From assembly GCF_964355755.1 (NCBI RefSeq), contig NC_092676.1, positions 16,226,288-16,290,287 of the forward strand: a stretch of 64,000 nt of DNA, read 5' to 3'. This stretch comes from Antedon mediterranea. Lineage: Eukaryota; Echinodermata; Crinoidea; Comatulida; Antedonidae. This document shows, piece by piece, positions 1,238 to 40,364 of the stretch. Each line of letters opens with the position of its first letter. Positions within the stretch are counted from its first letter, which is position 1. The position numbers and the translations under genes were made by a program. The notes under the pieces are model-generated. The model saw only the letters and a list, made by a program, of their open reading frames with translations, was not told the origin of the DNA and did not search any database.

Positions 1238-2475
<1,238 letters not shown>

Positions 2476-16300: not shown

Positions 16301-19300
16301 TATTCGCAATAGCTGTTAACACAAAACTATTTTTGTATTCTTGTAATGCATTTTTAATTTTCATATTGTAATAGATGCTTGGTCATATAAGGCATAATAT
16401 CTTAGCAACAGATCTAGCCATTCACTTTGACAACCAGAAAGAGCTGGCCAAAATATGTTTAACAGACAACTTGTGTATAAGCAATCCTAAGCATAGGTAG
16501 GTGGTGTAGTAGAGATCTCTATTCAGTGAGGACACCAGACAACTTGTGTATAAGCAATCCTAAGCATAGGTAGGTGGTGTAGTAGAGATCTCCATTCAGT
16601 GAGGACACCAGACAACTTGTGTATAAGCAATCCTAAGCATAGGTAGGTGGTGTAGTAGAGATCTCAATTCAGTGAGGACACTTTGTTGGTTGCCAATGGT
16701 GTCCTCTTAATTTGTTGGTTGCCAATGGTGTCCCCTCAATTTGTTGGTTGCCAATGGTGTCCTCTTAATTTGTTGGTTGCCAATGGTGTCCCCTCAATTT
16801 GTTGGTTGCCAATGGTGTCCTCTTAATTTGTTGGTTGCCAATGGTGTCCTCTTAATTTGTTGGTTGCCAATGGTGTCCCCTCAATTTGTTGGTTGCCAAT
16901 GGTGTCCTCTTAATTTGTTGGTTGCCAATGGTTTCCCCTCAATTTGTTGGTTGCCAATGGTGTCCTCTTAATTTGTTGGTTGCCAGTGGTGTCCTCTTAA
17001 TTTGTTGGTTGCCAATGGTGTCCCCTCAATTTGTTGGTTGCCTGTGGTGTCCTCTTAATTTGTTGGTTGCCAATGGTGTCCTCTTAATTTGTTGGTTGCC
17101 AATGGTGTCCTCTTAATTTGTTGGTTGCCAATGGTGTCCTCTTAATTTGTTGGTTGCCAATGGTGTCCTCTTAATTTGTTGGTTGCCAATGGTGTCCCCT
17201 CAATTTGTTGGTTGCCAATGGTGTCCCCTCAATTTGTTGGTTGCCAATGGTGTCCTCTTAATTTGTTGGTTGCCAATGGTGTCCTCTTAATTTGTTGGTT
17301 GCCAATGGTGTCCTCTTAATTTGTTGGTTGCCAATGGTGTCCTCTTAATTTGTTGGTTGCCAATGGTGTCCTCTTAATTTGTTGGTTGCCAATGGTGTCC
17401 TCTTAATTTGTTGGTTGCCAATGGTGTCCTCTTAATTTGTTGGTTGCCAATGGTGTCCTCTTAATTTGTTGGTTGCCAATGGTGTCCTCTTAATTTGTTG
17501 GTTGCCAATGGTGTCCTCTTAATTTGTTGGTTGCCAATGGTGTCCCCTCAATTTGTTGGTTGCCAATGGTGTCCTCTCAATTTGTTGGTTGCCAATGGTG
17601 TCCTCTTAATTTGTTGGTTGCCAATGGTGTCCTCTTAATTTGTTGGTTGCCAATGGTGTCCTCTTAATTTGTTGGTTGCCAATGGTGTCCTCTTAATTTG
17701 TTGGTTGCCAATGGTGTCCTCTTAATTTGTTGGTTGCCAATGGTGTCCTCTTAATTTGTTGGTTGCCAATGGTGTCCTCTTAATTTGTTGGTTGCCAATG
17801 GTGTCCTCTTAATTTGTTGGTTGCCAATGGTGTCCTCTTAATTTGTTGGTTGCCAATGGTGTCCTCTTAATTTGTTGGTTGCCAATGGTGTCCTCTTAAT
17901 TTGTTGGTTGCCAATGGTGTCCTCTTAATTTGTTGGTTGCCAGTGGTGTCCTCTTAATTTGTTGGTTGCCAGTGGTGTCCTCTTAATTTGTTGGTTGCCA
18001 GTGGTGTCCCCTCAATTTGTTGGTTGCCAGTGGTGTCCCCTCAATTTGTTGGTTGCCAATGGTGTCCTCTTAATTTGTTGGTTGCCAATGGTGTCCTCTT
18101 AATTTGTTGGTTGCCAATGGTGTCCTCTTAATTTGTTGGTTGCCAATGGTGTCCTCTTAATTTGTTGGTTGCCAGTGGTGTCCTCTTAATTTGTTGGTTG
18201 CCAATGGTGTCCTCCTAATTTGTTGGTTGCCAATGGTGTCCTCTTAATTTGTTGGTTGCCAATGGTGTCCTCTTAATTTGTTGGTTGCCAATGGTGTCCT
18301 CTTAATTTGTTGGTTGCCAATGGTGTCCTCTTAATTTGTTGGTTGCCAATGGTGTCCCCTTAATTTGTTGGTTGCCAATGGTGTCCTCTTAATTTGTTGG
18401 TTGCCAATGGTGTCCTCTTAATTTGTTGGTTGCCAATGGTGTCCTCTTAATTTGTTGGTTGCCAATGGTGTCCTCTTAATTTGTTGGTTGCCAATGGTGT
18501 CCTCTTAATTTGTTGGTTGCCAGTGGTGTCCTCTTAATTTGTTGGTTGCCAGTGGTGTCCTCTTAATTTGTTGGTTGCCAGTGGTGTCCCCTCAATTTGT
18601 TGGTTGCCAGTGGTGTCCCCTCAATTTGTTGGTTGCCAATGGTGTCCTCTTAATTTGTTGGTTGCCAATGGTGTCCTCTTAATTTGTTGGTTGCCAATGG
18701 TGTCCTCTTAATTTGTTGGTTGCCAATGGTGTCCTCTTAATTTGTTGGTTGCCAGTGGTGTCCTCTTAATTTGTTGGTTGCCAGTGGTGTCCTCTTAATT
18801 TGTTGGTTGCCAATGGTGTCCTCCTAATTTGTTGGTTGCCAATGGTGTCCTCTTAATTTGTTGGTTGCCAATGGTGTCCTCTTAATTTGTTGGTTGCCAA
18901 TGGTGTCCTCTTAATTTGTTGGTTGCCAATGGTGTCCTCTTAATTTGTTGGTTGCCAATGGTGTCCTCTTAATTTGTTGGTTGCCAATGGTGTCCCCTTA
19001 ATTTGTTGGTTGCCAATGGTGTCCTCTTAATTTGTTGGTTGCCAATGGTGTCCTCTTAATTTGTTGGTTGCCAATGGTGTCCTCTTAATTTGTTGGTTGC
19101 CAATGGTGTCCTCTTAATTTGTTGGTTGCCAATGGTGTCCTCTTAATTTGTTGGTTGCCAGTGGTGTCCTCTTAATTTGTTGGTTGCCAATGGTGTCCTC
19201 TTAATTTGTTGGTTGCCAGTGGTGTCCTCTTAATTTGTTGGTTGCTAATGGTGTCCCCTCAATTTGTTGGTTGCCAATGGTGTCCTCTTAATTTGTTGGT

Positions 19301-20932
19301 TGCCAATGGTGTCCCCTTAATAGAGGTTCTACTGTATTGGCAACATGCATCTCCAATTTGTCTACCGATAATGCTAATGCTTGATAATGCTTGTTTTGTC
19401 TAATGTCGTCTATTGTTGTACTTGACATGCACATGTGTGACTGTCGATTCCATCTTAAAGTAGCAATAACGTAATTTTAATTTTAACTTTCAGAGCTAAT
19501 TTACATTCTTTGTTGATGACAGCCTCTGACTTGTCTCTATCTGCAAAATACTGGCCTGTCCAACGTGAAACAGTAGATTTTATCTATGAGGAATTCTATC
19601 AGCAGGTACAGTATACTGTACATTACAAAAAATTCAAATTTTTTATTGTTTCTGAAATTGGAAGATAAGAAATATGACTTAAAAAGAAAGTCTTAAAACT
19701 TAAAAATAGTCTAGGCATATGCACACTCTGGCCAATCTGATTGGCGTAATTTGGTTGAGTGCGCTAAGTCGTTGTGATGACAATCTTTTGTATTTTGATA
19801 GCATTTAATGTTGAGAAAAAAGTTTCAGTAATAAAATAACATTTTGTTTCAGGGAGATGTTGAAAGAGAGCATGGGTGTGAACCTCTGCCAATGATGAAC
19901 AGAGGGCTGAAAGATAAACTTGCCCAAGAACAGGCAAGTGGAAATCCATATTAATAGTATTCCCTATTTAATTTCTATTTAACTACTTAAAATGTAAGCC
20001 TTTAAAACTGTACAATAAAAATTCTACAAAAAAAGGTTATGTTGGCGTAACAGGCCCAAAAATATAGCATAGGTTGTTTTTTTTTAATTGAAAAAGATTA
20101 AAAGAACAAACTCAACCACCCTAATCATTTGCTTATATTGCGTATTTTTGTTAAATGGTCTTGATTTTTTTCTTTTTTAAAATAACTAAAAATGTCTAGG
20201 ATATGGCATATTTTTAGGGTCAGTCGGGTTACACCAACACAAGGTATTGGTTTGGCCTTATAATTCTAAAAATGGTTCAGACAGCATACCTTGGCCACCC
20301 ACTTGTGGATGGCAGAATCATACACATTGGTGTTCAAATACAGTTATTAATTTTCGAGCTATAGTTCTGCCGGTTTAACTAGATGAGTTACAACAAAAGA
20401 GATGAGTTGAAACTTGATAAACATGTATGTTAAATTTGTTTTACAGGTGAATTTCTACAAGTTTATTTGCATACCATGTTACACAACCTTACATCAAGTG
20501 CTTCCAATAACGCAGTCTCTACTTGAGAGCACCAAGTAAGTTTCATTATCAACTCAGTGTGTTTTCAATTTTATGTTATTAGTAGGTTAGCTGAAAGGGG
20601 TAGAATATATTGGACCACTCAATTTATGAAAATAAATTCAGTGATATACCATGCAGGCAGATTTCAGGTGATGCAGCAGTGTGTGACGCGCAACCAAGCA
20701 TACAATTTATAGCGCGGATACAAGATAACTTCTGCGGACCGTTGAACAGGCAACGCGAAATAGGCTCCCTATTTATTTATCATATTATTGTATTCCCAAC
20801 AATGTTGTGTACTTTCTAATCTATGTTGTATTCATATTTAGGGATAATTACCTACAGTGGGAGAGAGCTATGCTAGGCAAGAGTACACTGATGTGGAGTG
20901 TAGACAGCTCACGAACCAAGGAAAACCAATGA
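4320..20932 (+). CDS. PDE10A: PDE10A-type dual GAF cyclic-nucleotide phosphodiesterase
   Basis: This enzyme hydrolyses cAMP and/or cGMP. The 23 exons are 4320-4467, 5024-5182, 6081-6236, 6745-6794, 7609-7643, 7983-8082, 9553-9646, 10730-10788, 11448-11498, 12650-12708, 12946-12997, 13432-13574, 13934-14026, 14258-14388, 14652-14710, 15019-15161, 15303-15537, 15926-16132, 16375-16496, 19494-19605, 19853-19933, 20447-20535 and 20842-20932. All phases agree and give 822 aa. The ATG at 4320 is chosen because an in-frame TAG lies two codons upstream. The N-terminal [19 protein letters not shown] block is typical of PDE10A. GAF-A spans about residues 103-284 and GAF-B about 304-463 ([13 protein letters not shown]). 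The catalytic domain spans about 511-810, with His562 in YHNFEH, metal ligands in HDLDH (600-604) and Asp711. The purine-selective Gln780 lies in [10 protein letters not shown], a PDE10-like sequence that argues against PDE5 or PDE11. Intron 21 uses a GC donor. Two exon-donor junctions are tandemly duplicated in the following introns. Candidate AATAAA signals lie at 21179 and 21209. Confidence 0.93.
5328..5464. mobile_element. MITE, TCTGTCTACACTATC family, copy 1
   Basis: It lies in PDE10A intron 2. The left terminus reads ttaagctctgtcaacactat and the right end is its reverse complement (gatggtgtagacagagccta). Internal blocks tgtgatgtgcccaaatatgg and catatatggtcacatcac are also mutually inverted. 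It has no coding capacity. Confidence 0.65.
5496..5783. mobile_element. TIR element with an internal perfect hairpin
   Basis: Outer inverted repeats are acattattataacacacct at the left and ggtgtgttaataatgt at the right. Inside it, two 21-bp arms (5518-5538 and 5561-5581, beginning gttgatataaagtttgcgg) are perfect reverse complements separated by 22 bp. It lies in PDE10A intron 2. Confidence 0.5.
7205..7389. mobile_element. 185-bp TIR element (GGTTCCCACTAG family), full copy
   Basis: The ends are taagcgtggttcccactag and, at the right, ctagtgggaaccaagcttta, which are inverted repeats. The whole element is close to a single large fold-back rich in GCAACGCAAGYG. It sits in PDE10A intron 4. The truncated copy at 760-912 is in the opposite orientation. 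Confidence 0.65.
9205..9500 (-). repeat. Dispersed repeat family A, copy 2
   Basis: In reverse orientation it carries the shared blocks gccattttaatgtcacataa and ggctgccagccaat. The second block also occurs at 61003-61018 in the other orientation. A 24-bp segment at 9418-9442 (aaataaaataaatggctgca...) is inverted relative to 8814-8838, so part of intron 6 can fold back. Simple AATAA repeats at 9357-9430 lie inside it. Confidence 0.45.
10101..10430 (+). mobile_element. tRNA-derived SINE
   Basis: The head resembles a tRNA, with a pol III A box (tggccgagcggttaag) and a B box (ggttcgaggctc, about 10165-10176). The body has ggataaggactataaacc and gtgcactttaaagaacc, which resemble the conserved central domain of SINEs found widely in marine invertebrates. 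The tail is an (AAAC)n run ending at 10430. It is not a functional tRNA because the stem pairings continue into the SINE body. It lies in PDE10A intron 7. Confidence 0.8.
11467..11586 (+). repeat. 60-bp tandem duplication of exon 9 end plus its splice donor
   Basis: The unit begins catgggtcggtattgctata and covers the last 32 bases of PDE10A exon 9, the donor gtaagt, and 28 intronic bases. It occurs twice head to tail (11467-11526 and 11527-11586), with one visible difference (aaatcag versus aaattag). If the second donor (at 11559) were used, the retained sequence would read gta agt tga, an immediate in-frame stop. Confidence 0.9.
14085..14205. repeat. Dispersed repeat family B, short copy
   Basis: It shares gtacaaataattt, the block attatttgttccattgca, and gaggctaggcc with the longer copies at 49500-49895 and 61790-62235. 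It lies in PDE10A intron 13. Confidence 0.45.
16463..16681 (+). repeat. Three tandem 73-bp copies of exon 19 end, donor and a TE terminus
   Basis: The unit starts cagacaacttgtgtataagc, contains the last 34 bases of PDE10A exon 19 and its donor gtaggt, then gtagtagagatctctattc and gaggacac. Copies begin at 16463, 16536 and 16609. Only the first is attached to the exon. Use of donor 2 or 3 would read CAT AGG TAG, a stop right after the exon. The 29-bp minisatellite starts directly after the third copy. Confidence 0.9.
16682..19320 (+). repeat. 29-bp minisatellite, 91 copies, in PDE10A intron 19
   Basis: This is an uninterrupted direct tandem array with the core ttggttgccaatggtgtc. The period is exactly 29 bp: 2639 bp, 91 units. 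Units differ at a few positions: ctcttaa versus cctcaa, and ccaatgg versus ccagtgg. A patterned block of about 20-22 units recurs. The marker variant cctcctaat occurs at 18211 and 18820, 609 bp (21 units) apart, showing higher-order duplication. Short ORFs across it are frame artefacts of the repeat. There are no spacers, so it is not a CRISPR array. Confidence 0.97.
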
Positions 20933-26728: not shown

Positions 26729-26736
26729 TACCTGAC
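26729..26736. repeat. Target-site duplication of foldback element 1
   Basis: TACCTGAC is repeated exactly at 28820-28827 and brackets the element. Confidence 0.85.
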
Positions 26737-28819
26737 GGGATCCAGTCAAGTCGCCCCATCGCAAAGTCGCCCCATACAAAGTCGCCCAATACAAAGTCGC
26801 CCCATCGCAAAGTCGCCCCGGCACAGTCGCCCCATTACAAAGTCGCCCCATCGCAAAGTCGCCCCAACGCAAAGTCGCCCCATCGCAAAGTCGCCCCAAC
26901 GCAAAGTCGCCCCATCGCAAAGTCGCCCACGGTTTTATTTCGGAAGTGCCGCCGCTAGTAGTACGCTGTTTTAATCATATAGCGGTTGCGTTTGATATCG
27001 ATTGCGTTGTTACTTTGGTCGCGCTAAATGTCGTATACATTATAATGTTTATCCTATTATATACATAATTTGTGTTTTAATTTTTATTTTACAGGTTATA
27101 ATGGAGTGATGTGCTTTTTAAAAATCATTAAAAAATAGTCCCTTGTTTGAAAGTTCTAAAAAGATTTCGAAAAGATTATCCCTGATTTATAGTTTCGAAA
27201 ATGTTAATTTAATATGATTTTAAAATTAGTTACCAGAGCCACAATTACGAATCTTTCTTCAACCTACGTGGATACCAGCTCATTTTTTAGGATAATATAA
27301 TAAGTGTATAAATAGTAGGCCTTCGTATATTTACAGTAGTTAAAACAATAACAGCGTTGTAAAACAATAAATGTTATATAGGCTACTTATTGATCATTTT
27401 GCATTTATTGACAAGTGTCTATAGTTATTTAATTTTAATTATGACTTTTCAAAATGAAGAAATAAAAAAAAGGGGATTTCTTCGCCGATATGATCGTTTT
27501 ACACATGCAGGTATTTTAGTAAAATTAAAACGCTACATTTTGACCATGGAAAACCCATCGTACAGATGATTATCGTGTGCGTGTTTTTTAAAAAGGGGAA
27601 TCCCCGACGGGCAGCAGAAAGACGTAGCAGCTGTGAGAAGGAAACAGATACCAGAAGGAGCAGCTCCGATTGGTTTCAGAGAATGTTTCAGATTGCGAGT
27701 CGCTTTTTATTCAACAGCAGTTTTCAACCCTTTTGGTTATAGAACATTCTAATTATCATGCCTAATAAATATCCTCATATCGGGTGTTTATTTAATTTTA
27801 ATAAACAAGACAGTGAAGAGGCACGGAATAATACGTACACGGACGTACGACGAATACACACATGCACGTCATCATTTACGACATAATATAGTGGCGATAT
27901 GATGCAATTTTATAATGGATATAATGATGGGATTGCATTTCCAGGCTTATAATCAATGTTCATTGTAATACTATGTATATAATAGTAAACTGAATGTTTA
28001 TAAACAAATTGTTTTACCTAATTTGTTGCATATAAAAATAAAAGACACAGACGTAGCCTATGTTCCCTATAAAATATTTCACATTTAAATTTATGTACTG
28101 TTAAATGACATTATGCTGAATAATAGGCTTACTATAATCTTAAACTATGTTTACAAATTGTCATTTTTAAGGCACACATCTTTCTCTCATCATAGACCTC
28201 AGTGTAAAATAAAAACAAAAATCAATTATTAATATAGGCCTAATAATAATAAATATTCATCGACCAAAGTAAAAATAATCTAGATCGTATAACATCATTT
28301 TATCGCGACCAAAATTAAACGCCACCGATTTCGAACGCGACTGATATCATCGTAAAACTCCGACGGGGTTTCCCCATCTTCAGATGGTGCGTTGTAGTGC
28401 GACAACGGCGGAGTAATTACGGGGGTTTCCCTCTGGTGAGAGCTAGCACGTTAGTGCGACCGCGGAGTGATTAGTTGGGGGCTTCCTCTCTGATGATTGG
28501 GGAGCGTGCCGATCGTGTGACCTGAGACTACATGGAGGGGCTTTCCCTTTTATGCCTACACGTTCCGTGTTATTTTGTGTATCATTGCGACATTTTACGC
28601 ACTTTTAAACTATTTTTTAACGTTTTGGGGCGACTTTGCGATGGGGCGACTTTGTGTTGGGGCGACTTTGCGTTGGGGCGACTTTGCGATGGGGCGACTT
28701 TGCAATGGGGCGACTGTGTCAGGGCGACTTTGTTTTGGGGCGACTTTGCGATGGGGCGACTGTGTATGGGGCGACTTTGTATGGGGCGACTTTGCAATGG
28801 GGCGACTTGACTAGCATCC
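26737..28819. mobile_element. TU-like foldback transposon, long copy (2083 bp)
   Basis: The ends are inverted: GGGATCCAGTCAAG at the left and CTTGACTAGCATCC at the right. Each end leads into a tandem array of a 15-16-bp unit (GTCGCCCCATCGCAAA and variants), running in opposite orientation at the two ends (26748-26930 and 28626-28808). The element is flanked by an exact 8-bp target duplication, TACCTGAC (26729-26736 and 28820-28827). The inner 1.7 kb carries no transposase-like ORF, so it is non-autonomous. ORFs across the tandem units are artefacts. Confidence 0.85.
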
Positions 28820-28893
28820 TACCTGACATACAAGATGCTAAACAATTGTTACAGTATATTAGAATACAGTAAAACTCATATTAAGGAAACACC

Positions 28894-29076: not shown

Positions 29077-31110
29077 TTATAATACTGTGCAAGGATATTT
29101 GAAGTACTCAAAGTCAGCTCCAACTGCACATGACATCAATGCTTGCATGTTGCGTTCTTCTAAATCCCCAAACACATAACCATTCGCTTTATCCACTAAC
29201 TTCATCACATTTAACATACTGTCTTTATTCTGTAACAATCAAGTAGAAACTAATACAAAAAAAATTGTATTTTGGAAATCAACAAACCCACAAACAAACA
29301 AACAAACAAACCCACATCAGAGTGCTGTTAATTCTTCTAGTTGATTAGAAACTGGTGTTTGGGAATCTGTCATGTCATAATTAAAACAGGTAAATGTATA
29401 CAGAAGAAGATTCAGGAACTTGGAAAAAAGGGGAGGTCCTCTTTTGACCATTTAAAGGAGGTGCTGGGTTTACAATTGAGAACTTTTAAAACCTATTTTA
29501 TTTGACTTTGTGAAATGTTACTCTAAAAATAGTGAATCATTGATTTAGTGTAAAGTGATTTCCTTGTAAACTACAGTACCTGAATGTTGAGCGTACAAAA
29601 TGACACAAGACTGTAATCTTGAATCAAACCAATCATTGCTTCATTTAGTTTCTTGAACTTCTTCACAAATGGCACATCTTCCAAATGATCCAAAAGATAG
29701 CTCAAATCAGACACTTCAGTGTAATAATCAAGGTTGAAAGCTGAAAGGAAAATAAAGCATAAAAGCATTTAGTGGAACCTAAAGAAACTACAAGAACTTC
29801 TTAAATACAGTAGGTATAGTGAAGTTGTTTCGCTTTATAATTTATTCAGAATAAAGGCTGTCACTACTGACAACACCCACCTTTAGTCACTCGCCTTGAC
29901 TATGAAAAAAATTGTATTATTTATTTACCTAATTTTCCATATGTTTCAACCAAATCAATTTTTGAGAGAACATTGATGTGTGGTAGCTCAAGTTGCAGCA
30001 TTGTAGAGAGAGATGTCAACAAAACAGAAATGAATTTGGATGGATCACTGCAATAATGTGAGTCTACTAAATGTACAGCCACAAGCTGCAAACGAGAGAG
30101 ACATTTTTAGTAATTTCATAATTACATTTTTGCTATTACGAAGATTAAACAAATGGGATGGTAATTAACATAGCGTTATTGTTATTTCGAGACACAAGCG
30201 ATGACGGTCATCCCCCTCCTAAACACAGTCTGCAGACCCTGTACATGCAGGTTTGGAGGTTTCTGTGTTAGCAAACTTCAAAAGGATGAACCAGGAACCC
30301 CTATAAAACCTTAAAAGGTGCTTACGAGTCTGATGTTTATCTTTTTTAATGAATCCAGAAGAATCAAAGTGAATTCACAGCCTACATATACTATAATATA
30401 CATAAAACTTAATATTTTTTTTAATTAAGTAAAAATGAAAAACTTGGGTATACCGTGTGCATTCAGTTCGCGTACTGAAAGTTTCAAAATGACGTCATTA
30501 ACTTTGCCATTTATCGCACCAAATGTTAAATCAACCAAAAACAGTCCTGATAAAATGGGAATGAAATATACTGGGATGCACAGATTTATAATATGCATGT
30601 AAAAATTTCATCTATAGTAATGTACTGTACAAAAAACTTGGTTGGCTTTCTCCTAAATACAGTTTTTGTGAAACTGTTTTAACCATTAATGATTCAGTTT
30701 CCTGAATAACTGGCCTTTACCTTAAAATTCAGTTTTAGTAATTTCTGCAGAATATTTTTAAATGAATTATGATGAGTGTAGAGTTCAACTTGTCCTGGGC
30801 AATCAAATAACAAGTAATAGTCCTTCAGATTCTCCAGTTTCTTCAACAACCAGTCCACATTCTTTTCTAAATATTCCATGCAATAGATCAGACTGCCATT
30901 CGGTCCAAGATGGAGATTATCCATTACATCTGCAACAGATATCAATTCTGAGATGTCAACATCTGGAGTAAATGGAAGAAGGTCATTGCCAGGATCTAGA
31001 TTAATGATGGCTACTTTCCGACCAATTCCTGTTAAGAAGTGTTTCATTCCATTGCAGTAAGTTGTCTTTCCAGCTCCTGGTGGTCCAATCAGTACTTGAG
31101 CAAATGCCAT
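29077..31110 (-). CDS. GPN2: GPN-loop GTPase 2
   Basis: GPN2 is a small GTPase of the GPN family, which acts in assembly and nuclear import of RNA polymerase II/III (family knowledge). Exons on the - strand are 31110-30721, 30085-29929, 29740-29580 and 29229-29077. Phases agree and the protein is 286 aa, slightly shorter than the vertebrate protein. The start is the ATG at 31110-31108, because [17 protein letters not shown] aligns with the family start. Visible motifs are the P-loop GPPGAGKTT (residues 9-17), the family-defining Gly-Pro-Asn loop in LHLGPNG (69-71), the G3 motif FDCPGQVEL (102-110), and the G4 NVLSKIDL in exon 2. Exon 3 carries [20 protein letters not shown], a block typical of GPN2 and not of GPN1 or GPN3. 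The last exon encodes [10 protein letters not shown] and ends PCTVL-stop. Fragments of exon 1 also occur near 23.7-24.0 kb. Confidence 0.95.
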
Positions 31111-32513
31111 CACTTTAGTTTAAAGCTCAACTGTAGGCTGTAATAAAGAAAAAAACTTACTTTTGAGGTAAGCAGCCCGAATGATTGAAGTGTGTGTGCT
31201 AAATGTTCTTGCAAAGTTAAGATTAGTAATTAGTTTGTTAGAATTAGAATCCCCCCACTTTCGTCTTCCACACTCAACTAGGCCTAGGCCCTGAAAGGTT
31301 AAAAAATGTTACCAGTTAAAATTATGTTAAACTTACTTTCCTTTGTTGTTGTTTTATGATAAAATTGTAATTGAAATTATATTATTATTTTATAAAACAC
31401 AATAAACCTAAAGACCATGAGCGCTTCATTTCCTACTACTTATATGTACTGTACTACTACATCATGCATGCAGTAGGCCTACTAGGCTACTGTATAAATA
31501 AATCACTATGCCCTAGCTAGGGCTAAAATATTAGGCCTAGGCCTCGCCTACATGAATTCGATCCAACTCGGCCCTAAACCATCTCGGCCAAAGTCAAGTC
31601 GGCCCCACGTCAAGTTGGCCCCGCGTCAACTCGGCCACAAGTCAACTCGTCCTCAAGTCAACTCGGCCTCACGTCAACTCGTCCAAAAACTAATCCGTCA
31701 ACTCGGCATTTAAAAACTATGGAACGCAAAAAGTGCTAATATAGTAGTTAATATTATAATGGCAGGATAAACATCACAGAGTACGGTTGGACTAGGGCCT
31801 ACATAATAGACGAAATAAAACGGAAAATTCAATGTAAATTATAACACACTGGGCCTAATCGTTTAATTGATAGGTAGTATTTATTTATATTGTTTGAAAT
31901 AAATAAATATTTCTTCACATTCTGTATACAGGAATAACTGTCGACAGACATTTAATAAATTAATAATATTTAAACCATAATTCGGTCTACTAATGTATAT
32001 ACATCAATATAAAAAGAATAAAATATTAACATTAAAATCATAACAAATAAAAAGGCAAGAATACAAATTGCATAAGCATTATGGGTATAGGTTCCATGCA
32101 CACACACCCAGACATGAATGTGCATTATTTTCAAATAGGCCTTACAGTTTTTTTTGTATGACATTTTTATTTTCATTTCGTTTCTACTTCATAATTATTC
32201 ATAATTAATACAGTACACCATGGGAAGAGAGAAATTTGCTTCCATAACAGTCCATAGGGATGTGATTGTGATTTTATTGTATTAAATTATGGATTCATGG
32301 AATTTGTCATGGTGTGTTGTTACTAATTTCTTCCTCACTATCATCCGATGACCATCCAGAAACAGCTACCATTTTAACTGTTGCCCGTTGTCACGGAATA
32401 CGTCTCAAAACAGGTGTGAATGTTTAAAATGTAACGATGAACGGACGCGCGTCACGTTGAAAAAAAACGGCGCCATCTTCCGTTACACGAAACGGAACAG
32501 GTACGGATGGTGG
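31111..32513. other. GPN2 upstream region
   Basis: This holds the GPN2 5'UTR and promoter on the - strand, a CTAGGCC-rich patch (31490-31550), the short tandem array at 31553-31690, and AT-rich spacer up to the retroelement. No other gene is supported. The last four bases (gtgg, 32510-32513) are the retroelement's target duplication. Confidence 0.5.
31553..31690. repeat. Tandem array of about 16 bp (GTCAACTCGGCC), possible solo foldback arm
   Basis: About seven diverged units of GTCAACTCGGCCCCAC occur in tandem after gatccaactcggccc. The GATCC-led start and unit length resemble the ends of the TU-like elements at 26737 and 39416, but the unit sequence differs. No matching inverted arm is found in the window. 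Confidence 0.55.
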
Positions 32514-33180
32514 TGTTGTAAAACGGCCGAGAGTGCGAAGCTACTACAATTATTACACAAGGCGTACTAGCTTACCTTTTAGGCGGGACTGGTCTCTTGC
32601 CCCCTGGTGGCCCAGATGAAGTGCGATACACAGAAGAGTACGAACAGTCCACTCCGATGTGTGGCTGCTGGTAGTGATAAACACACAGGCCAGCCTAGGA
32701 GGACTAAACGTACCTTAATTCTGTTACTGTGTATGTGTGTGGCTACCCAGTGAGCAATCCCTCAGTACTAGCTAGGCTAGTAGGGTCGAGCTTGACCCCT
32801 TGTGGCTCGTACCTCGTAATAGTAGCAATGAGGCTTAAACTATACTATATAGGCCTATAACCTATTCAATCACAGTGAATACCTGTTGTTCCACCAATAT
32901 TACCGTAGAACTGGCTTATATACCGCTCAGTCTAGGCTGGGAAGCTTACACAGGAAACCCTGCTGGCTATAGGCTAGTCGGCTAATGTATATCAAACACC
33001 AGGGAACGTGCGTAATGGCTGATACTGATACAGCATAGGCTTAGGCCTAGTCACGATTTACGTCCGTTCCGTCTAATGTCATGCGTTCAAAGAGGCCGCT
33101 CCGGCACCGGTCAGTAACGCATGTGACCTCGGGTCACACCTTGGGTCGACCCATTATTATATAAGGGGGTTTTCACTACA
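32514..33180 (-). repeat. 3' LTR (667 bp)
   Basis: It is a direct repeat of the right-hand LTR. On the coding strand it starts TGTAGTGAAAACCCCC and ends GTTTTACAACA. A TATATAA-type motif (plus 33157-33163) lies close to its coding-strand start. It differs from the 5' LTR at the sites ttaattctgtt/ttaattccgtt and acgcatgtg/acgcacgtg. Confidence 0.92.
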
Positions 33181-33190
33181 CTCCTCCCAA
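33181..33190 (-). other. Polypurine tract
   Basis: The coding strand reads TTGGGAGGAG immediately before the 3' LTR, the expected place for the plus-strand primer of an LTR retroelement. Confidence 0.7.
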
Positions 33191-33721
33191 TTTTATAAAG
33201 GCTGAGCCCAGTGTTCTGATGTGGTCCAGTGCCTGGTAGCAATCGAGACTGCTTAATTAGGAGGATTTGAGGTAAACTCAGAAAAGTCCATCCCAATTGA
33301 AAATCTGCAAAGATAACCATTCTACACATCTTCCACAGTGAACCAGATCCAGCTCAGGATAGCAATGTGGTAAACGGTCAGTTAACTACCCAGGGGCTGT
33401 CAGTCGCGAGGTTGGAGTTACTTCACCCTTCTTCTCAGCGAGACAAAGAACAGTCTTAGGCTAATCAATTTGATAACAGTACTGGTCCATAGGGGACACA
33501 GCTTCGTGGATTTGCCCTGTGGCTGGCTAAGGTATAGCACATAGCCCTTGTCGGGTGAGGACACGGAAATCGTTATCCCTTTCCATGCATCACTGCGTCT
33601 CCCCACAGGTAAATCCAATAACCTTTTTACCTTATACGAAATGAGAGTCCATCATCGGACGAATGTAGGGCGGCTTTATTCAACCAAAAGAATTCCAAAC
33701 TTGGGCTGGAAGAATTAGCTC

Positions 33722-35026
33722 CTAAAGTCGGTATCTCAGGCTGAACTGCCGTGACCATGCAACCTTCGTCCTGTGAATATACAAGTAATTTAATCCATTT
33801 GGGGCCCGGGTTTCTGTAATGGTCCTTAAACCTCCTGGGTCCCAAACAAAACCCTCACTCCCTATCTCGACACTTGTGTATCGAATCTGAGCAACTCCTT
33901 GAGTGACAATGCAGTGCTCGGATTCCTCCAAACAATACACTGCATTCAGGCTTAACCTTTTCTCCTGAGTGGCAAGAGAAGACAGTCCTGCATCCTTAAT
34001 GGAGGCGGGATGGGCACACAATGCACCGAGTATGTTGACCAGATGACGGGGTCCTGCCGAAACAGGCACATCATTGCTGGGTACTGAACACACGTCAGCA
34101 GCGTTAACCGCACCCACTTCCGTCGGCTCGGTCTCCGTGGCTGGGGCAATGTTCCTGCCCTTCTTCAATGTGATGTACTGATTAGAAGTGTTGACCACAC
34201 ACAGGTGCGACTTCCGCAATCCCTGGTGTGTGGTAACTGGAATTGCCAACGAAGACTTCATCTCTGGACCTATAATGTAATCTGGTAATGGTAAATTGTT
34301 CGGTACGAGTTGACATTGGACACGCATTACTGAGTGTGGTGGTATCACTCTACGTTTGGCAACAAGGACACGGGCGATTCCAGAGGATTCGGATTCCCGA
34401 TTTTTCCTCACAGACACCATGCTAGAGCCTATTGTTAGCAGCAACTGTCCGCAGTCTATCATGGCCTTATTTTTCACCATAAAATCCTGACCTAGTAACA
34501 TTTCATCATGAATCGGTGCTACATAGAAGAATTCAGTGTAGACATCCGATCCCAATCTCAAGTTAATAGGTCGTCCCACTCTGTAACCAGGCATTGATGT
34601 ACCTCTACCTGCTAGAGTAAAGTTAAGCTCGGCTACAATAGGTGGTTTAGACAATAAACGTGAGTATACATTATCTGAGAGTATTGTCCGTTCCGCAGCC
34701 GTGTCCACAACAGCTGCCACTTCGGTTTGATTTACGCAGGCAGTGGTGAATAAGGCACGGTTGGATTGTACTCTGTTGATAATAATGGTTTTTTCAGTCT
34801 CATCTGCTTTGGTCTCTACCTCCACGGTTTGAGCTTGGTTTGTTGCACTCAACCCCAACAGATCGTCGGTCGGAGTAGTGCCTACAAATGAACCTTTGCA
34901 ACCTGGGAGTAGTGCCAGCGTGTTCTCTGAAAAAATACTCATAGAAACACTATTATTATCATGGACATTATTATTATCATTGACATTATTCTTTTTATGT
35001 ATTTCAGCCTTTGAGTCAGAGCCCAT
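33722..35026 (-). CDS. Retroelement aspartic-protease ORF
   Basis: This 434-residue ORF is in the -1 frame relative to the preceding gag ORF, and its frame is open upstream of the ATG, overlapping the gag end (35071). That layout fits expression by frameshift. The likely protease active site is AAVVDTAAERTILSD, with Asp-Thr-Ala in place of the commoner Asp-Thr-Gly. It is followed by a flap-like region and by EMLLGQDFM, which matches the ILG-D motif of retropepsins. The C-terminal 200 residues are not recognised. No polymerase motif follows. The 33190-33720 stretch downstream has only short unrecognised ORFs. Confidence 0.7.
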   Translation of the reverse strand: MGSDSKAEIHKKNNVNDNNNVHDNNSVSMSIFSENTLALLPGCKGSFVGTTPTDDLLGLSATNQAQTVEVETKADETEKTIIINRVQSNRALFTTACVNQTEVAAVVDTAAERTILSDNVYSRLLSKPPIVAELNFTLAGRGTSMPGYRVGRPINLRLGSDVYTEFFYVAPIHDEMLLGQDFMVKNKAMIDCGQLLLTIGSSMVSVRKNRESESSGIARVLVAKRRVIPPHSVMRVQCQLVPNNLPLPDYIIGPEMKSSLAIPVTTHQGLRKSHLCVVNTSNQYITLKKGRNIAPATETEPTEVGAVNAADVCSVPSNDVPVSAGPRHLVNILGALCAHPASIKDAGLSSLATQEKRLSLNAVYCLEESEHCIVTQGVAQIRYTSVEIGSEGFVWDPGGLRTITETRAPNGLNYLYIHRTKVAWSRQFSLRYRL

Positions 35027-35070
35027 AGAAGATGACAGGTTGAGAAGCTGGGCTGCGTTCCCAACCTGCT

Positions 35071-38000
35071 CTAGTTTGACGTCTGCTTACCTTCTGACCC
35101 AAATTGACAAACCTGTTGACCGGGTTCCTGGCCCTCAACGCACACTCGGGGTGGCAATGCTGGGTCCTGTCTAACCGGTGTTGGTGTTGCCTTGGGTTGT
35201 CGTTGTAGTGTAGTTAGCAGAATATCAAATTTGGTTGTCAACTGGTTAATTTGGTTCGACAACTCACTTACTAGGCGAGTGCCCCTGTTATCCTGTTGAA
35301 CTATTTTAGACTCGACGGCTCCATCAGTGGGATCTGGGTTTGGCTGTGAAGGTAACCGGTGATCCTTGGGATCAGGCTTCTTCGTTAGCCTAGGAACGGT
35401 AGAGTTTCGCTGGCTCGCCGGGCGAGTCCGACCCTTGCTAGGTTTACTTACCTTCCGAACCTCTACCTCTGCCCCACCATCAAAAGATTCCCCTCTATAC
35501 CTGGATGAGGTTGGGTGTACCAGATGTTTAGGCATGGTGGTAAACCGGACATGCGGCTTCACTGGTTCCTGTTGTCTACTCCTCGTACGAAGGCAGAGTT
35601 CTCTCAGCCCAGTGTACTTCTCGTAAGCTGCCATTGCTTCAGTCAGGGTGGTACAGTTCTGGTGAAGCATATACTGCCCAGCGTCAGCGTCAAGACAACC
35701 CACACAGAATTTCACAACCGCCCTTTGACAGATCCAACCTTGCGGGAGATCGCTAAAGGCTTTTCTAGTCAGTGTGAGAACTCTGTCGCCCCAATCTTCT
35801 ATAGATTCTCCTTCATGCTGTACAGCAGCTTCGAATTTCACTTCCAAGACCTCGGGTAACTCTTCGGCCTTAAAGCGTTCGTCAAAAGCTTGTACGATGT
35901 GTCTGAAAGAGATATCTACATTCATGTCAGTTAAATTAATAAAATACTCAGCAGCTATGCCGGTAACGCACCAACTGAAAGCATTGCGCATTCCCCTATT
36001 GCTGAGGTCATGCTCGTCAGCGTAATTGAGGAAGCGTTCCTTAAAGAGAACCCAATTATCCTTGCCATTAAATACTAGACTTTTGGGAATATCCTTGGGC
36101 CTGAAATGCTTCTGCCGCCTAAGGGTTCTACATTCAGTATTCCTCAAGAATTCCCTGAAGTCAGCTAAATACGCATCATGCTCACTTTCACCATCAGAGT
36201 CATCCTCCCAGGCCGCGATTTTTTTTTTCGTACATAAGTTGGGGACCCCCTCATGAAACGTCACAAAATAAACATGAATAATTCATCAGTTAAATTTTCT
36301 TGTTCCGTGTGCACCCAAGCGTATAGCAACAAGAAGTGATTACACAAGTGCGGTACGATTCTAGGCCTATCTCCGCTGTTGAAGAATAGCGGCGTTTTGT
36401 GTGGATTGTCGAAATAATCGGCCTTTAGTTTATGGTGTTTTTAATAAAATTTATTACTAAAGAATTACGTGTTAAAATTATAGTTTCTATTAATACTATT
36501 AGGCCTAATTATTAGTCTCTAAACCCATGTCTATTCTAGTAGTTACGTAGCTGTGTGGATGTGTGTGACGTGTGTGTGTGTTAGGTATGACCAAAGATAG
36601 TTACACTATCTTTGGTAATAGTTACACTATCTTTGGTATGACACAATCCGAGTAATAAGTCAGCAAAATTAAACAATAAACATTACACAAAAATACATTT
36701 TTTATTCTCGTGGGTCAAATCTTCCCATCTCATGTGTTCATATACGCGCATTTTTAAAGTTCCTTTGAGTACATTGCATATTGTTTGATAATTAATAGCA
36801 GAATTTAAAAAATACAGTACACAAATTATACACATTCTTTATTCTTGTGGGTCTAAGCTTTCTTTGGGCTATGTCCAAGAACGCTTGGGTGCACACGGAA
36901 CAACAACTGCGATACGATTCTTTCTACAATAATAGGCCTAGGATTCTAGGTCAATTCACGTGATTGCCTTCGCGCACTCTTCTTCACACACACGTCCACT
37001 ATGCAAAATGTGTCGAGGCTAATCGACAGCTAGGCAAAACATTAAACTAAGTAGTAATTGGACATAGCCCAAAGACACAAGTCACACACACCCACACAGC
37101 TACTACTAGAATATACAGGGGTTTAGATTAGAGACTAGTAATTAGGCCTAATAGTATCAATAGAAACTATAATTTTAACACGTAATTCTTTAGTAATAAA
37201 CTATATTAAAAACACCATAAACTAAAGGCTGATTATTTCGACAATCCACACAAAACTCCGCTATTCTATTATGAAATCTCACGCGGCAACCACAGCGGAG
37301 ATAGGCCTAGAATCGTACCGCACTTGTGTAATCACTTCTTGTTGCTATACGCTTGGGTGCACACGGAACAAGAAAATTTAACTGATGAATTATTCATGTT
37401 TATTTTGTGACGTTTCATGATGGGGTCCCCAACTTATGTACGAAAAAAAAAATCGCTCCCAGGCCCAACCAACATGTCGTGTCGGAGGTTCACCTCTAGA
37501 GGCACGCCTTGTGGAGGGTTGAGATCTCCTATCCCTTAGTTCCCTATGATCATAACGAGGTTCATAAGAGACTGGAGTCTGTTGGGTGTTATAGGAGCTA
37601 TAAAAATCTTTTCTTTCCCTATCATACATTGTGGGCCTATCTTGTGGTGCTTGGTATGTTGATGTGGCTTGGGTCTGATAATAGACTGGCGTACCACTGG
37701 TCTTATAATTAAAATGCGTCCCACAATTATCCTGCCAGGTAGATGTTTCTTGGGTATCCTGTTGGGAAGGTGTTACCCGGGCACCATGGTAGTAGGATAT
37801 CGGAGTAGTGTCCTGACGTACAAGCGTTGTCCAGGTATCGTGATACGCAATTGGACTGTTGGCGCTTGATTTAGGAACCCTCCCAGAATTGCACGATAAA
37901 GTATCTACTGGTGAATCAGACAGTATATCAGAGACTCTTGTATCGTAATTCTGATTTGCCTCTGTTTTAGGATGTAGAGAAGAATATCTTGACTCTATTC

Positions 38001-38307
38001 CTAACCCAAAATGGTCGGGTGGATAAGCAACCTCAAGTGGTGTGCTGGTATCCCGGAGCTCACGGTAAATCGTTGAGTCTCCGCCTCTCCCTCCCCATCT
38101 CGGGTTTGGAGTGAAATCCAACCATTTCATAAACTTGCCTTTTCCTGAGCCTCTTATTATCTTCCCTATGTTATTCGGGGTGATGTTGCCGTACCCCTCC
38201 CTCCATTCTATAAGTTTTTGAGCACGTGAGGCACCTATGCCAGGCAAAAGGTTAAGATCTAACATGTCGCAAAAATTAATAGAAACGAATCGGGATTTTG
38301 GAGGCAT
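35071..38307 (-). pseudogene. Gag-like ORF interrupted by a transposon
   Basis: The N-terminal part (38307-37457, ATG at 38307) and the C-terminal part (36214-35071) are two halves of one frame separated by the 1242-bp TIR element at 36215-37456. Across the 9-bp duplication the frame is the same on both sides, so the ORF was continuous before insertion. Near the N-terminus is LLPGIGASRAQKLIEW, a helix-hairpin-helix motif, followed by a Tyr/Thr/Gln-rich linker. The second half has the layout of a Ty3-type capsid domain: hydrophobic and charged helices including WCVTGIAAEYFINL and EDWGDRVLTL, then a basic Pro/Lys-rich tail. No CCHC zinc knuckle is seen. The copy cannot express an intact Gag. 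Confidence 0.75.
36215..37456. mobile_element. 1242-bp TIR element inserted in the gag ORF
   Basis: The ends GCGATTTTTTTTTTCGTACA (left) and its reverse complement (right) open TIRs of roughly 360 bp that reach about 36578 and 37080. It is flanked by an exact 9-bp duplication TCCCAGGCC (36206-36214 and 37457-37465). The centre carries a repeated palindrome ACCAAAGATAGT at 36590-36636. No transposase ORF is present. A 9-bp duplication is typical of Mutator-like elements, but the ends do not allow firm assignment. Confidence 0.85.
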
Positions 38308-38950
38308 GCTAAATTATCAAATTACTACTAAATCGTATAGAATTGAAGTAGACCCAACAATGCTATACCAATACAATAAAAAATCGACTTGTGTATAACT
38401 GAGGATTGTACTTCTTATATACTACAACTATAAAAATATATATAATAGAAGTAAAAACAACTTTCTCTAAAAGGCAATATTAAAGAAAAACGAATTACAC
38501 CTGCTTAATAGAAATCACAGTTGCTTAACGTGATATGCAAATGAAGTCAAAGAAACGTGCGAAGTCCGCCCACAAGTGTCTTAGGAATTCAGAAGATCAC
38601 ACAATGGAGGATACGCTCCGTGATTCAACTTCAGCAATGCAAAAATACAATTGAAATAATTTTATAATAATGACAATAAATGAAGCTCTTATTGATATGT
38701 AATAAGTTTAACTTCTCAATGGGTACTACCTGATGAAGTTCCGTTACAAAAGCATTAACGTCTACCATCAATGGCGCCTATAGAGTCGATACAAAAATCC
38801 TTGCACTTTATTAAATATCAACTAATCGCGGTGAACCCACACCGTGCGGAATTGTTAAAAGTACAGCGGGAGATTTGATCCGTTATGTCGTCTCCGGACG
38901 AACTCTTCGCTAACAAACTAAGTAACTTGGCGTCCCGAATTCACGTTTTT

Positions 38951-38963
38951 GCTCGCAGCGCCA
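38951..38963 (-). other. tRNA primer-binding site of the retroelement
   Basis: On the coding strand TGGCGCTGCGAGC follows the 5' LTR after one spacer base (38964). TGG start and position are typical, since they pair with the CCA end of a tRNA. The tRNA identity was not determined. Confidence 0.6.
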
Positions 38964-38964
38964 A

Positions 38965-40364
38965 TGTTGTAAAACGGCCGAGAGTGCGAAGCTACTACAA
39001 TTATTACACAAGGCGTACTAGCTTACCTTTTAGGCGGGACTGGTCTCTTGCCCCCTGGTGGCCCAGATGAAGTGCGATACACAGAAGAGTACGAACAGTC
39101 CACTCCGATGTGTGGCTGCTGGTAGTGATAAACACACAGGCCAGCCTAGGAGGACTAAACGTACCTTAATTCCGTTACTGTGTATGTGTGTGGCTACCCA
39201 GTGAGCAATCCCTCAGTACTAGCTAGGCTAGTAGGGTCGAGCTTGACCCCTTGTGGCTCGTACCTCGTAATAGTAGCAATGAGGCTTAAACTATACTATA
39301 TAGGCCTATAACCTATTCAATCACAGTGAATACCTGTTGTTCCACCAATATTACCGTAGAACTGGCTTATATACCGCTCAGTCTAGGCTGGGAAGCTTAC
39401 ACAGGAAACCCTGCTGGGATCCAGTCAAGTCGCCCCATCGCAAAGTCGCCCCATACAAAGTCGCCCAATACAAAGTCGCCCCATCGCAAAGTCGCCCCAA
39501 AACAAAGTCGCCCCGGCACAGTCGCCCCATCGCAAAGTCGCCCCATTACAAAGTCGCCCCATCGCAAATTCGCCCCATCGCAAAGTCGCCCCAACGCAAA
39601 GTCGCCCCATCGCAAAGTCGCCCACGGTTTTAATCATATCGGTTGCGTTTGACATTGATCGCGTTGTTACTTTGGTCGCGCTAAATGTCGTATACATTAT
39701 AATGTTTATCCTATTATATACATAATTTGTGTTTTAATTTTTATTTTACAGGTTTTAATGGAGTGATGTGCTTTTTAAAAATCATTAAAAAAATAGTCCC
39801 TTGTTTGAAAGTTCCAAAAAGATTATCCCTGATTTATAGTTTCGAAAATGTTAATTTAATATGATTTTAAAATTAGTTACCAGAGCCACAATTACGAATC
39901 TTTCTTCAACCTACGCGTGGATACCAGCTCATAGGTATGAGCCGCGATAGGGCGTTTTGTGATGGGGCGACTTTGCGATGAGGCGACTTTGCGTTGGGGC
40001 GACTTTGCGATGGGGCGACTTTGCGATGGGGCGACTGTGTCGGGGCGACTTTGTTTTGGGGCGACTTTGCGATGGGGCGACTGTGTAAGGGGCGACTTTG
40101 TATGGGGCGACTTTGCGATGGGGCGACTTGACTAGCATCCACCCTGCTGGCTATAGGCTAGTCGGCTAATGTATATCAAACACCAGGGAACGTGCGTAAT
40201 GGCTGATACTGATACAGCATAGGCTTAGGCCTAGTCACGATTTACGTCCGTTCCGTCTAATGTCATGCGTTCAAAGAGGCCGCTCCGGCACCGGTCAGTA
40301 ACGCACGTGACCTCGGGTCACACCTTGGGTCGACCCATTATTATATAAGGGGGTTTTCACTACA
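38965..40364 (-). repeat. 5' LTR (667 bp) split by a foldback element
   Basis: It matches the LTR at 32514-33180 except for two observed substitutions and the 733-bp interruption (725-bp element plus 8-bp duplication). Confidence 0.92.
39416..40140. mobile_element. TU-like foldback transposon, short copy (725 bp)
   Basis: It has the same ends as the element at 26737 (GGGATCCAGTCAAG and CTTGACTAGCATCC) and the same 15-16-bp tandem units in opposite orientation at the two ends (39427-39625 and 39957-40133). The first part of its interior (39629-39930) matches 26970-27278 of the long copy, including the block gttactttggtcgcgctaaa. About 1.3 kb of the long copy's interior is missing. It is flanked by ACCCTGCT (39408-39415 and 40141-40148), which occurs once in the other LTR and so proves the insertion. 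Confidence 0.92.

What the first reader, a model, noticed from the sequence alone, without database searches (positions are those of the whole stretch)
26737..28819. TU-like foldback transposon with minisatellite-built inverted ends and an 8-bp target duplication
Both ends are arrays of a 15-16-bp unit (GTCGCCCCATCGCAAA) in opposite orientation, capped by GGGATCCAGTCAAG and its near inverse, with an exact 8-bp duplication TACCTGAC. Sea-urchin TU elements are known for long inverted repeats whose outer part is built of about 15-bp tandem units and for 8-bp duplications, so this looks like a relative. The left and right arrays differ in unit order, which suggests recombination or slippage after divergence. 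The 2.1-kb interior has no transposase, so the mobilising enzyme is unknown.
Basis: partly seen in the sequence, partly recalled or inferred. Interest (0 to 1): 0.75.

Follow-up and report, generated by a model that had tools for sequence, protein, structure and literature searches.

The report
Jumping DNA tipped with short repeats
This is one of about 200 recent copies of an animal jumping-DNA family whose two ends are mirror-image rows of a 16-letter repeat, and one copy elsewhere in the genome still carries part of a P-element-type enzyme gene, which suggests how a long-known but unexplained style of transposon is moved.

Summary
Window 26737-28819 is a complete non-autonomous DNA transposon: 14-bp caps, inverted arrays of a 16-bp unit, exact 8-bp duplication TACCTGAC. 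The other LTR keeps the intact empty site, so insertion with 8-bp duplication is shown directly. The genome (354 Mb, host unidentified) holds about 210 left and 204 right caps. Of 26 checked pairs, 21 have matching 8-bp flanks (mispaired control 1/650). One 3,679-bp copy with the same caps and perfect 8-bp duplication carries a P-superfamily transposase gene: intact THAP domain, HTH, RNase-H N-half, C-terminal half deleted. It is the genome's best P-transposase match; no hAT or Mutator hit lies inside the 76 mapped pairs. Preferred target GTNNNNAC fits P-type elements. Best reading: a P-superfamily foldback element, Galileo-like in principle, with arrays acting as multiple transposase-binding sites. 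That link rests on one copy; no full-length autonomous copy was found, and binding is inferred. Kinship with sea-urchin TU elements is plausible but untested. Two sister array-capped families occur, one starting at 31554.

The parts
26729..26736 (.). left 8-bp target duplication TACCTGAC of copy E1
26737..26750 (+). left cap GGGATCCAGTCAAG
   Evidence: about 210 genomic occurrences
26748..26928 (+). left array, 11.6 units of about 16 bp (GTCGCCCCATCGCAAA)
   Evidence: unit code acdaGfababa
26929..28625 (.). non-coding interior; no trace of the family transposase
   Evidence: tblastn with the transposase and the C-terminal pieces negative
28499..28624 (.). unique right subterminal region shared with the transposase-bearing copy L091 (94% over 324 bp together with array and cap)
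28626..28808 (-). right array in inverse orientation, 11.7 units
28806..28819 (-). right cap CTTGACTAGCATCC
28820..28827 (.). right 8-bp target duplication TACCTGAC
39408..39415 (.). left 8-bp duplication ACCCTGCT of copy E2
39416..40140 (+). second copy E2 (725 bp) of the same family: same caps, arrays 39427-39623 and 39944-40129, shortened interior
40141..40148 (.). right 8-bp duplication ACCCTGCT of copy E2
32930..32996 (.). intact empty site for E2 in the partner LTR: the joined E2 flanks minus one 8-bp copy match here exactly
32514..40364 (-). LTR retrotransposon that hosts E2: LTRs 32514-33180 and 38965-40364 (the latter interrupted by E2), 2 differences in the aligned 677 bp, TSD GTGG, gag and aspartyl protease reading frames
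31554..31713 (+). left cap and array of a sister family (GAATTCGATCCAACTCGGCC, unit CAACTCGGCCCCACGT); no right end seen in the window

Best explanation
A recently active, high-copy, non-autonomous DNA transposon family moved by a P-superfamily (THAP/P-element-like) transposase. Shown: defined ends inserted with 8-bp duplication of GTNNNNAC-like targets; about 200 copies; one copy with the same ends holds the N-terminal half of a P-type transposase gene. Inferred: the transposase THAP domain binds the 16-bp units (invariant GTCGCCCCA...CAAA with a 3-nt variable spacer), the 12-unit arrays at both ends bring the ends together as multimer docking sites as proposed for Galileo, the enzyme cuts at the caps and inserts by cut-and-paste with an 8-bp stagger, and the usual 2.1-kb copies are passengers with an unrelated filler interior. 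The two arms come from an old inverted duplication, since unit order is shared between arms and across copies.
For: Copy L091 (C3:13620618-13624296, 3,679 bp): same caps, exact TSD GTTGGAGC, left 108 bp 95-99% and right 324 bp 94% identical to the window copies. Its interior encodes THAP (PF05485, E 2.8e-16 for exons 1+2, the intron having GT-AG borders), HTH (PF12017, E 6e-13) and RNase H N-half (PF21787, E 1e-40), and matches Drosophila P transposase 6p5a (E 3.6e-15), with the Asp residues of two aligned acidic motifs conserved. It is the best PF21787 hit in the whole genome. 59 hAT and 36 MULE hits: none inside the 76 mapped cap pairs. TSD 8 bp, the P size (PMC7776569). Target preference G1, T2, A7, C8, as in the GT...AC half-motifs of P, 1360 and Galileo (PMC4168063). 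Unit core conservation at least 0.93, mostly 0.97 or more, against 0.70-0.85 in the spacer, over 612 units. Galileo THAP binds several sites in its TIR tandem repeats (PMC3688188). L091's unique right subterminal region lies inside the family's diversity (0.8-6% from other copies).
Against: Only one copy ties the transposase to these ends, and it lacks the C-terminal half (GTP-binding insert, RNase H C). No full-length autonomous copy was found. A relic 92% identical over about 430 bp (L092/L093) and a 63% relative (L094) show no arrays on the 3' side that was read. The caps do not start with CA as the zebrafish P-like element Pdre2 does (PMC10983969). Capture of a P-gene fragment by a foldback element moved by something else is not excluded. 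Palindromy of single 8-mers did not exceed control.
Confidence: 0.78

Rival explanations
1. The family is moved by another 8-bp superfamily (hAT, Merlin or Mutator/Phantom type), and L091 is a foldback copy that captured a P-gene fragment, for example during gap repair.
For: 8-bp TSDs are not unique to P; the L091 insert ends inside the coding region; foldback ends arose in several superfamilies (PMC3169594); other P families are present in the genome as possible donors.
Against: No hAT or MULE hit in the mapped pairs; no donor for the P gene in the assembly beyond a relic 92% identical over about 430 bp; GT...AC targets; the P fragment starts upstream of the first exon and is joined to the shared right end, as expected of a simple internal deletion derivative. 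Merlin was not searched.
Confidence: 0.16
2. The arrays are ordinary minisatellite slippage products with no role in transposition.
For: Unit number varies between copies; tandem repeats expand and contract in Galileo F TIRs (PMC3573991).
Against: Unit order is fixed across copies and shared by both arms; core positions are near-invariant while the 3-nt spacer varies; two sister families keep a similar cap-plus-array design with other units.
Confidence: 0.2
3. Not a transposon but a dispersed repeat or segmental duplication.
For: None after testing.
Against: Exact empty site and TSD; 21/26 matching 8-bp flanks.
Confidence: 0.01

Closest known systems
Galileo (Drosophila, P superfamily, foldback-like)
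   Same: THAP-type P transposase; long internally repetitive TIRs; many two-TIR non-autonomous copies; palindromic GT...AC target (PMC3688188, PMC4168063, PMC3573991)
   Different: Galileo TIR repeats are about 140-210 bp and absent from some groups; TSD 7 bp; here 16-bp units, about 12 per arm, TSD 8 bp
P element (Drosophila) and Pdre2 (zebrafish)
   Same: 8-bp TSD; THAP, HTH and RNase H domains; internally deleted non-autonomous copies (PMC7776569, PMC10983969)
   Different: short TIRs (31 and 13 bp) with single subterminal sites instead of arrays; different terminal bases
TU elements (Strongylocentrotus purpuratus; Liebermann et al. 1983, cited in PMC4079207)
   Same: inverted ends whose outer part is built of about 15-bp tandem units, 8-bp duplications (from memory, not read here)
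   Different: no TU sequence or autonomous TU was available; sequence kinship untested
Tetris (D. virilis) and Tm1 (Meloidogyne)
   Same: foldback TIRs; tandem repeats and TSD of 8-10 bp in Tetris (PMC4079207, PMC3169594)
   Different: Tetris repeats about 220 bp with unknown transposase; Tm1 has a Mutator/Phantom transposase

Membership tests
P superfamily of DNA transposons | transposase with THAP, HTH and RNase H domains between the same ends | tested here: met
   L091; single copy, N-terminal half only
P superfamily of DNA transposons | GTP-binding insertion domain and C-terminal RNase H part | tested here: inconclusive
   deleted in L091; weak matches in the degenerate relative L092, which has no caps in the stretch read
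P superfamily of DNA transposons | 8-bp (7-8) target duplication with GT...AC preference | tested here: met
P superfamily of DNA transposons | THAP binding to subterminal sites | not testable with these tools
   only unit-core conservation measured
hAT superfamily | hAT transposase (PF05699) inside copies | tested here: not met
   59 genomic hits, none inside the 76 mapped pairs on C1-C6
Mutator/Phantom | MULE transposase (PF10551) inside copies | tested here: not met
   36 hits, none inside the 76 mapped pairs
Foldback-type elements (structural class) | long, internally tandem-repetitive inverted ends around a non-coding middle | tested here: met
TU elements of sea urchin | sequence similarity to TU inverted repeats | not testable with these tools
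   no TU sequence held; paper searches found only a citation

The most novel reading that the evidence does not exclude
Short-unit minisatellite-ended foldback elements of the TU kind, described in 1983, are P-superfamily transposons whose arrays are multimerised THAP-binding sites; the deleted copy L091 could also make a truncated transposase acting as a repressor, as some internally deleted P elements do (the latter from general knowledge).
Probability: 0.3. Interest if true: 0.7.

Novelty: new variant of a known kind. Interest (0 to 1): 0.52.

Why it matters
Foldback elements with repetitive ends have often lacked an identified mobilising enzyme (Tetris is one such case). A copy with the same ends and a P-type gene gives a concrete candidate and makes the array-as-binding-site idea testable with a single protein domain and a 16-bp repeat. 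Fixed unit order with invariant cores suggests that array structure is kept by selection or by common descent of a young family, not blurred by slippage. It would extend the Galileo type of design (P transposase plus multi-site ends) to a genome with much shorter repeat units.

Tried and rejected
hAT and Mutator as mobilisers: family searches gave hits but none inside mapped cap pairs. Long copies (4.2, 8.7, 16.9 kb) as autonomous candidates: the parts held look like standard copies with extra inserted DNA. 3' flanks of two other P genes for arrays: none. Sister-family caps near P-gene hits: none within 10 kb among those listed, by inspection. Host identification by COX1: no match in the assembly; literature searches for a matching 11-chromosome assembly were not decisive. 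Literature on TU elements: only a citation found.

Full report
WHAT IS THERE. Window 26737-28819 is a 2,083-bp element with caps GGGATCCAGTCAAG and CTTGACTAGCATCC, an inner left array (26748-26928) and an inverse right array (28626-28808) of a 16-bp unit, and the exact 8-bp duplication TACCTGAC. The arms are 90% complementary over 185 nt without gaps.

SECOND COPY AND EMPTY SITE. It lies in one LTR (38965-40364) of an LTR retrotransposon whose other LTR (32514-33180) differs at 2 positions in the aligned 677 bp; the retrotransposon has a GTGG duplication and minus-strand gag and aspartyl-protease frames. Joining the flanks of the copy and dropping one ACCCTGCT gives a string found exactly at 32930 in the other LTR. 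This shows directly an 8-bp duplicating insertion, later than the already young retrotransposon.

FAMILY. The genome (G000, 354 Mb, 18 contigs, 11 of them large) has about 210 left caps and 204 right caps, with zero for the reversed control patterns. Of the first 100 left caps listed (C1-C6), 76 pair with a right cap within 20 kb; most are 1.7-2.2 kb, some 346-763 bp, and some are longer, several of these apparently through other DNA inserted in them. In 26 pairs with both ends held, 19 have identical 8-bp flanks and 21 at least 7/8; mispaired controls give 1/650. Left arms of the 40 copies scored are mostly 88-100% identical to the window copy. The right subterminal region differs by 3.6% on average between copies, in a star-like tree. 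Flanking 8-mers prefer G1, T2, A7, C8.

ARRAYS. Coding each unit by its spacer shows left arrays following acdaeGfababa and right arrays ackaeGhabaoa: the same order, with three arm-specific unit types. In 612 sixteen-bp units GTCGCCCCA and CAAA are near-invariant (0.93-1.00) while the three bases between vary (0.70-0.85). This fits a bipartite protein-binding site, but common descent of a young family could also keep units alike; binding itself is inferred.

THE ENZYME. Whole-genome searches gave 59 hAT and 36 MULE hits, none inside the 76 mapped pairs (compared by inspection). The best hit to the P-element RNase H domain lies inside a cap pair on C3. That 3,679-bp copy (L091) has the same caps, the perfect duplication GTTGGAGC, and 108 bp (left, 95-99%) and 324 bp (right, 94%) of sequence shared with the window copies. 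Its interior holds, on the minus strand, a THAP exon pair with GT-AG intron borders (PF05485, E 2.8e-16), a P-type HTH and the N-half of RNase H (E 1e-40); it matches Drosophila P transposase 6p5a (E 3.6e-15). The C-terminal half is gone, the coding region running into the left array, so this copy is an internal deletion derivative and not autonomous. A relic on C7, 92% identical over about 430 bp, keeps weak C-terminal domains but no caps in the stretch read. A high-copy unrelated repeat sits in the first intron of L091.

HOW IT LIKELY WORKS. By analogy with P elements (8-bp stagger, THAP binding to subterminal sites, PMC7776569) and Galileo (several THAP sites in TIR repeats, PMC3688188), the transposase binds the units, pairs the ends, cuts at the caps and inserts at GTNNNNAC-like sites. 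Steps shown: the ends, the 8-bp insertion, target preference, and co-occurrence of these ends with a P-type gene in one copy. Steps inferred: binding, pairing, and that this enzyme lineage moves the whole family.

WHAT IT IS NOT SHOWN TO BE. Membership in TU is untested: no TU sequence was available, and foldback ends arise convergently (PMC3169594). Capture of a P fragment by an otherwise mobilised element remains possible (16%).

RELATED FAMILIES. A sister family starts at 31554 (cap GAATTCGATCCAACTCGGCC); the genome search with it gives matches of 80% identity and more, and the cap search shows a further variant cap GATTTCGATCCAAGTCGGCC. No P gene was seen within 10 kb of the listed caps.

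NOVELTY. A P-superfamily foldback family with 16-bp units is a new variant of a known kind; in the literature held here Galileo is the nearest precedent, with much longer repeats and 7-bp duplications (PMC4168063, PMC3573991).

Noticed in passing
window 16682-19321: 91 copies of a 29-bp tandem unit (97% matches) with strong AT skew, next to a 73-bp tandem array; a stretch TTAAGAGGACAC like part of this unit also appears just left of copy E1 (about 26692).
   Followed up: no
window 31554-31713; caps genome-wide: Two sister array-capped families with related caps and units (CAACTCGG and CAAGTCGG types); some copies have both arms, e.g. C7:15238078-15239647.
   Followed up: partly
C1:11590432, C1:17137067, C1:17675620, C2:23508217, C2:20034378: Normal-length copies whose 8-bp flanks do not match; could be products of ectopic recombination between copies, as reported for Galileo.
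   Followed up: no
C1:2823415, C3:37950354, C8:6208861; C3:12884054, C6:31442664: Other P-type families with identical scores in several places and long open frames (794 and 617 codons), suggesting recently active P elements of other lineages.
   Followed up: no
window 32514-40364: Young LTR retrotransposon with gag and protease frames; an extra frame at 37390-38313 has a weak helix-hairpin-helix match and no pol was seen in the ORF list.
   Followed up: partly
window 1486-2475 and 30694-31119: Alpha-tubulin-like exon and the start of a GPN-loop type GTPase gene near the elements.
   Followed up: no
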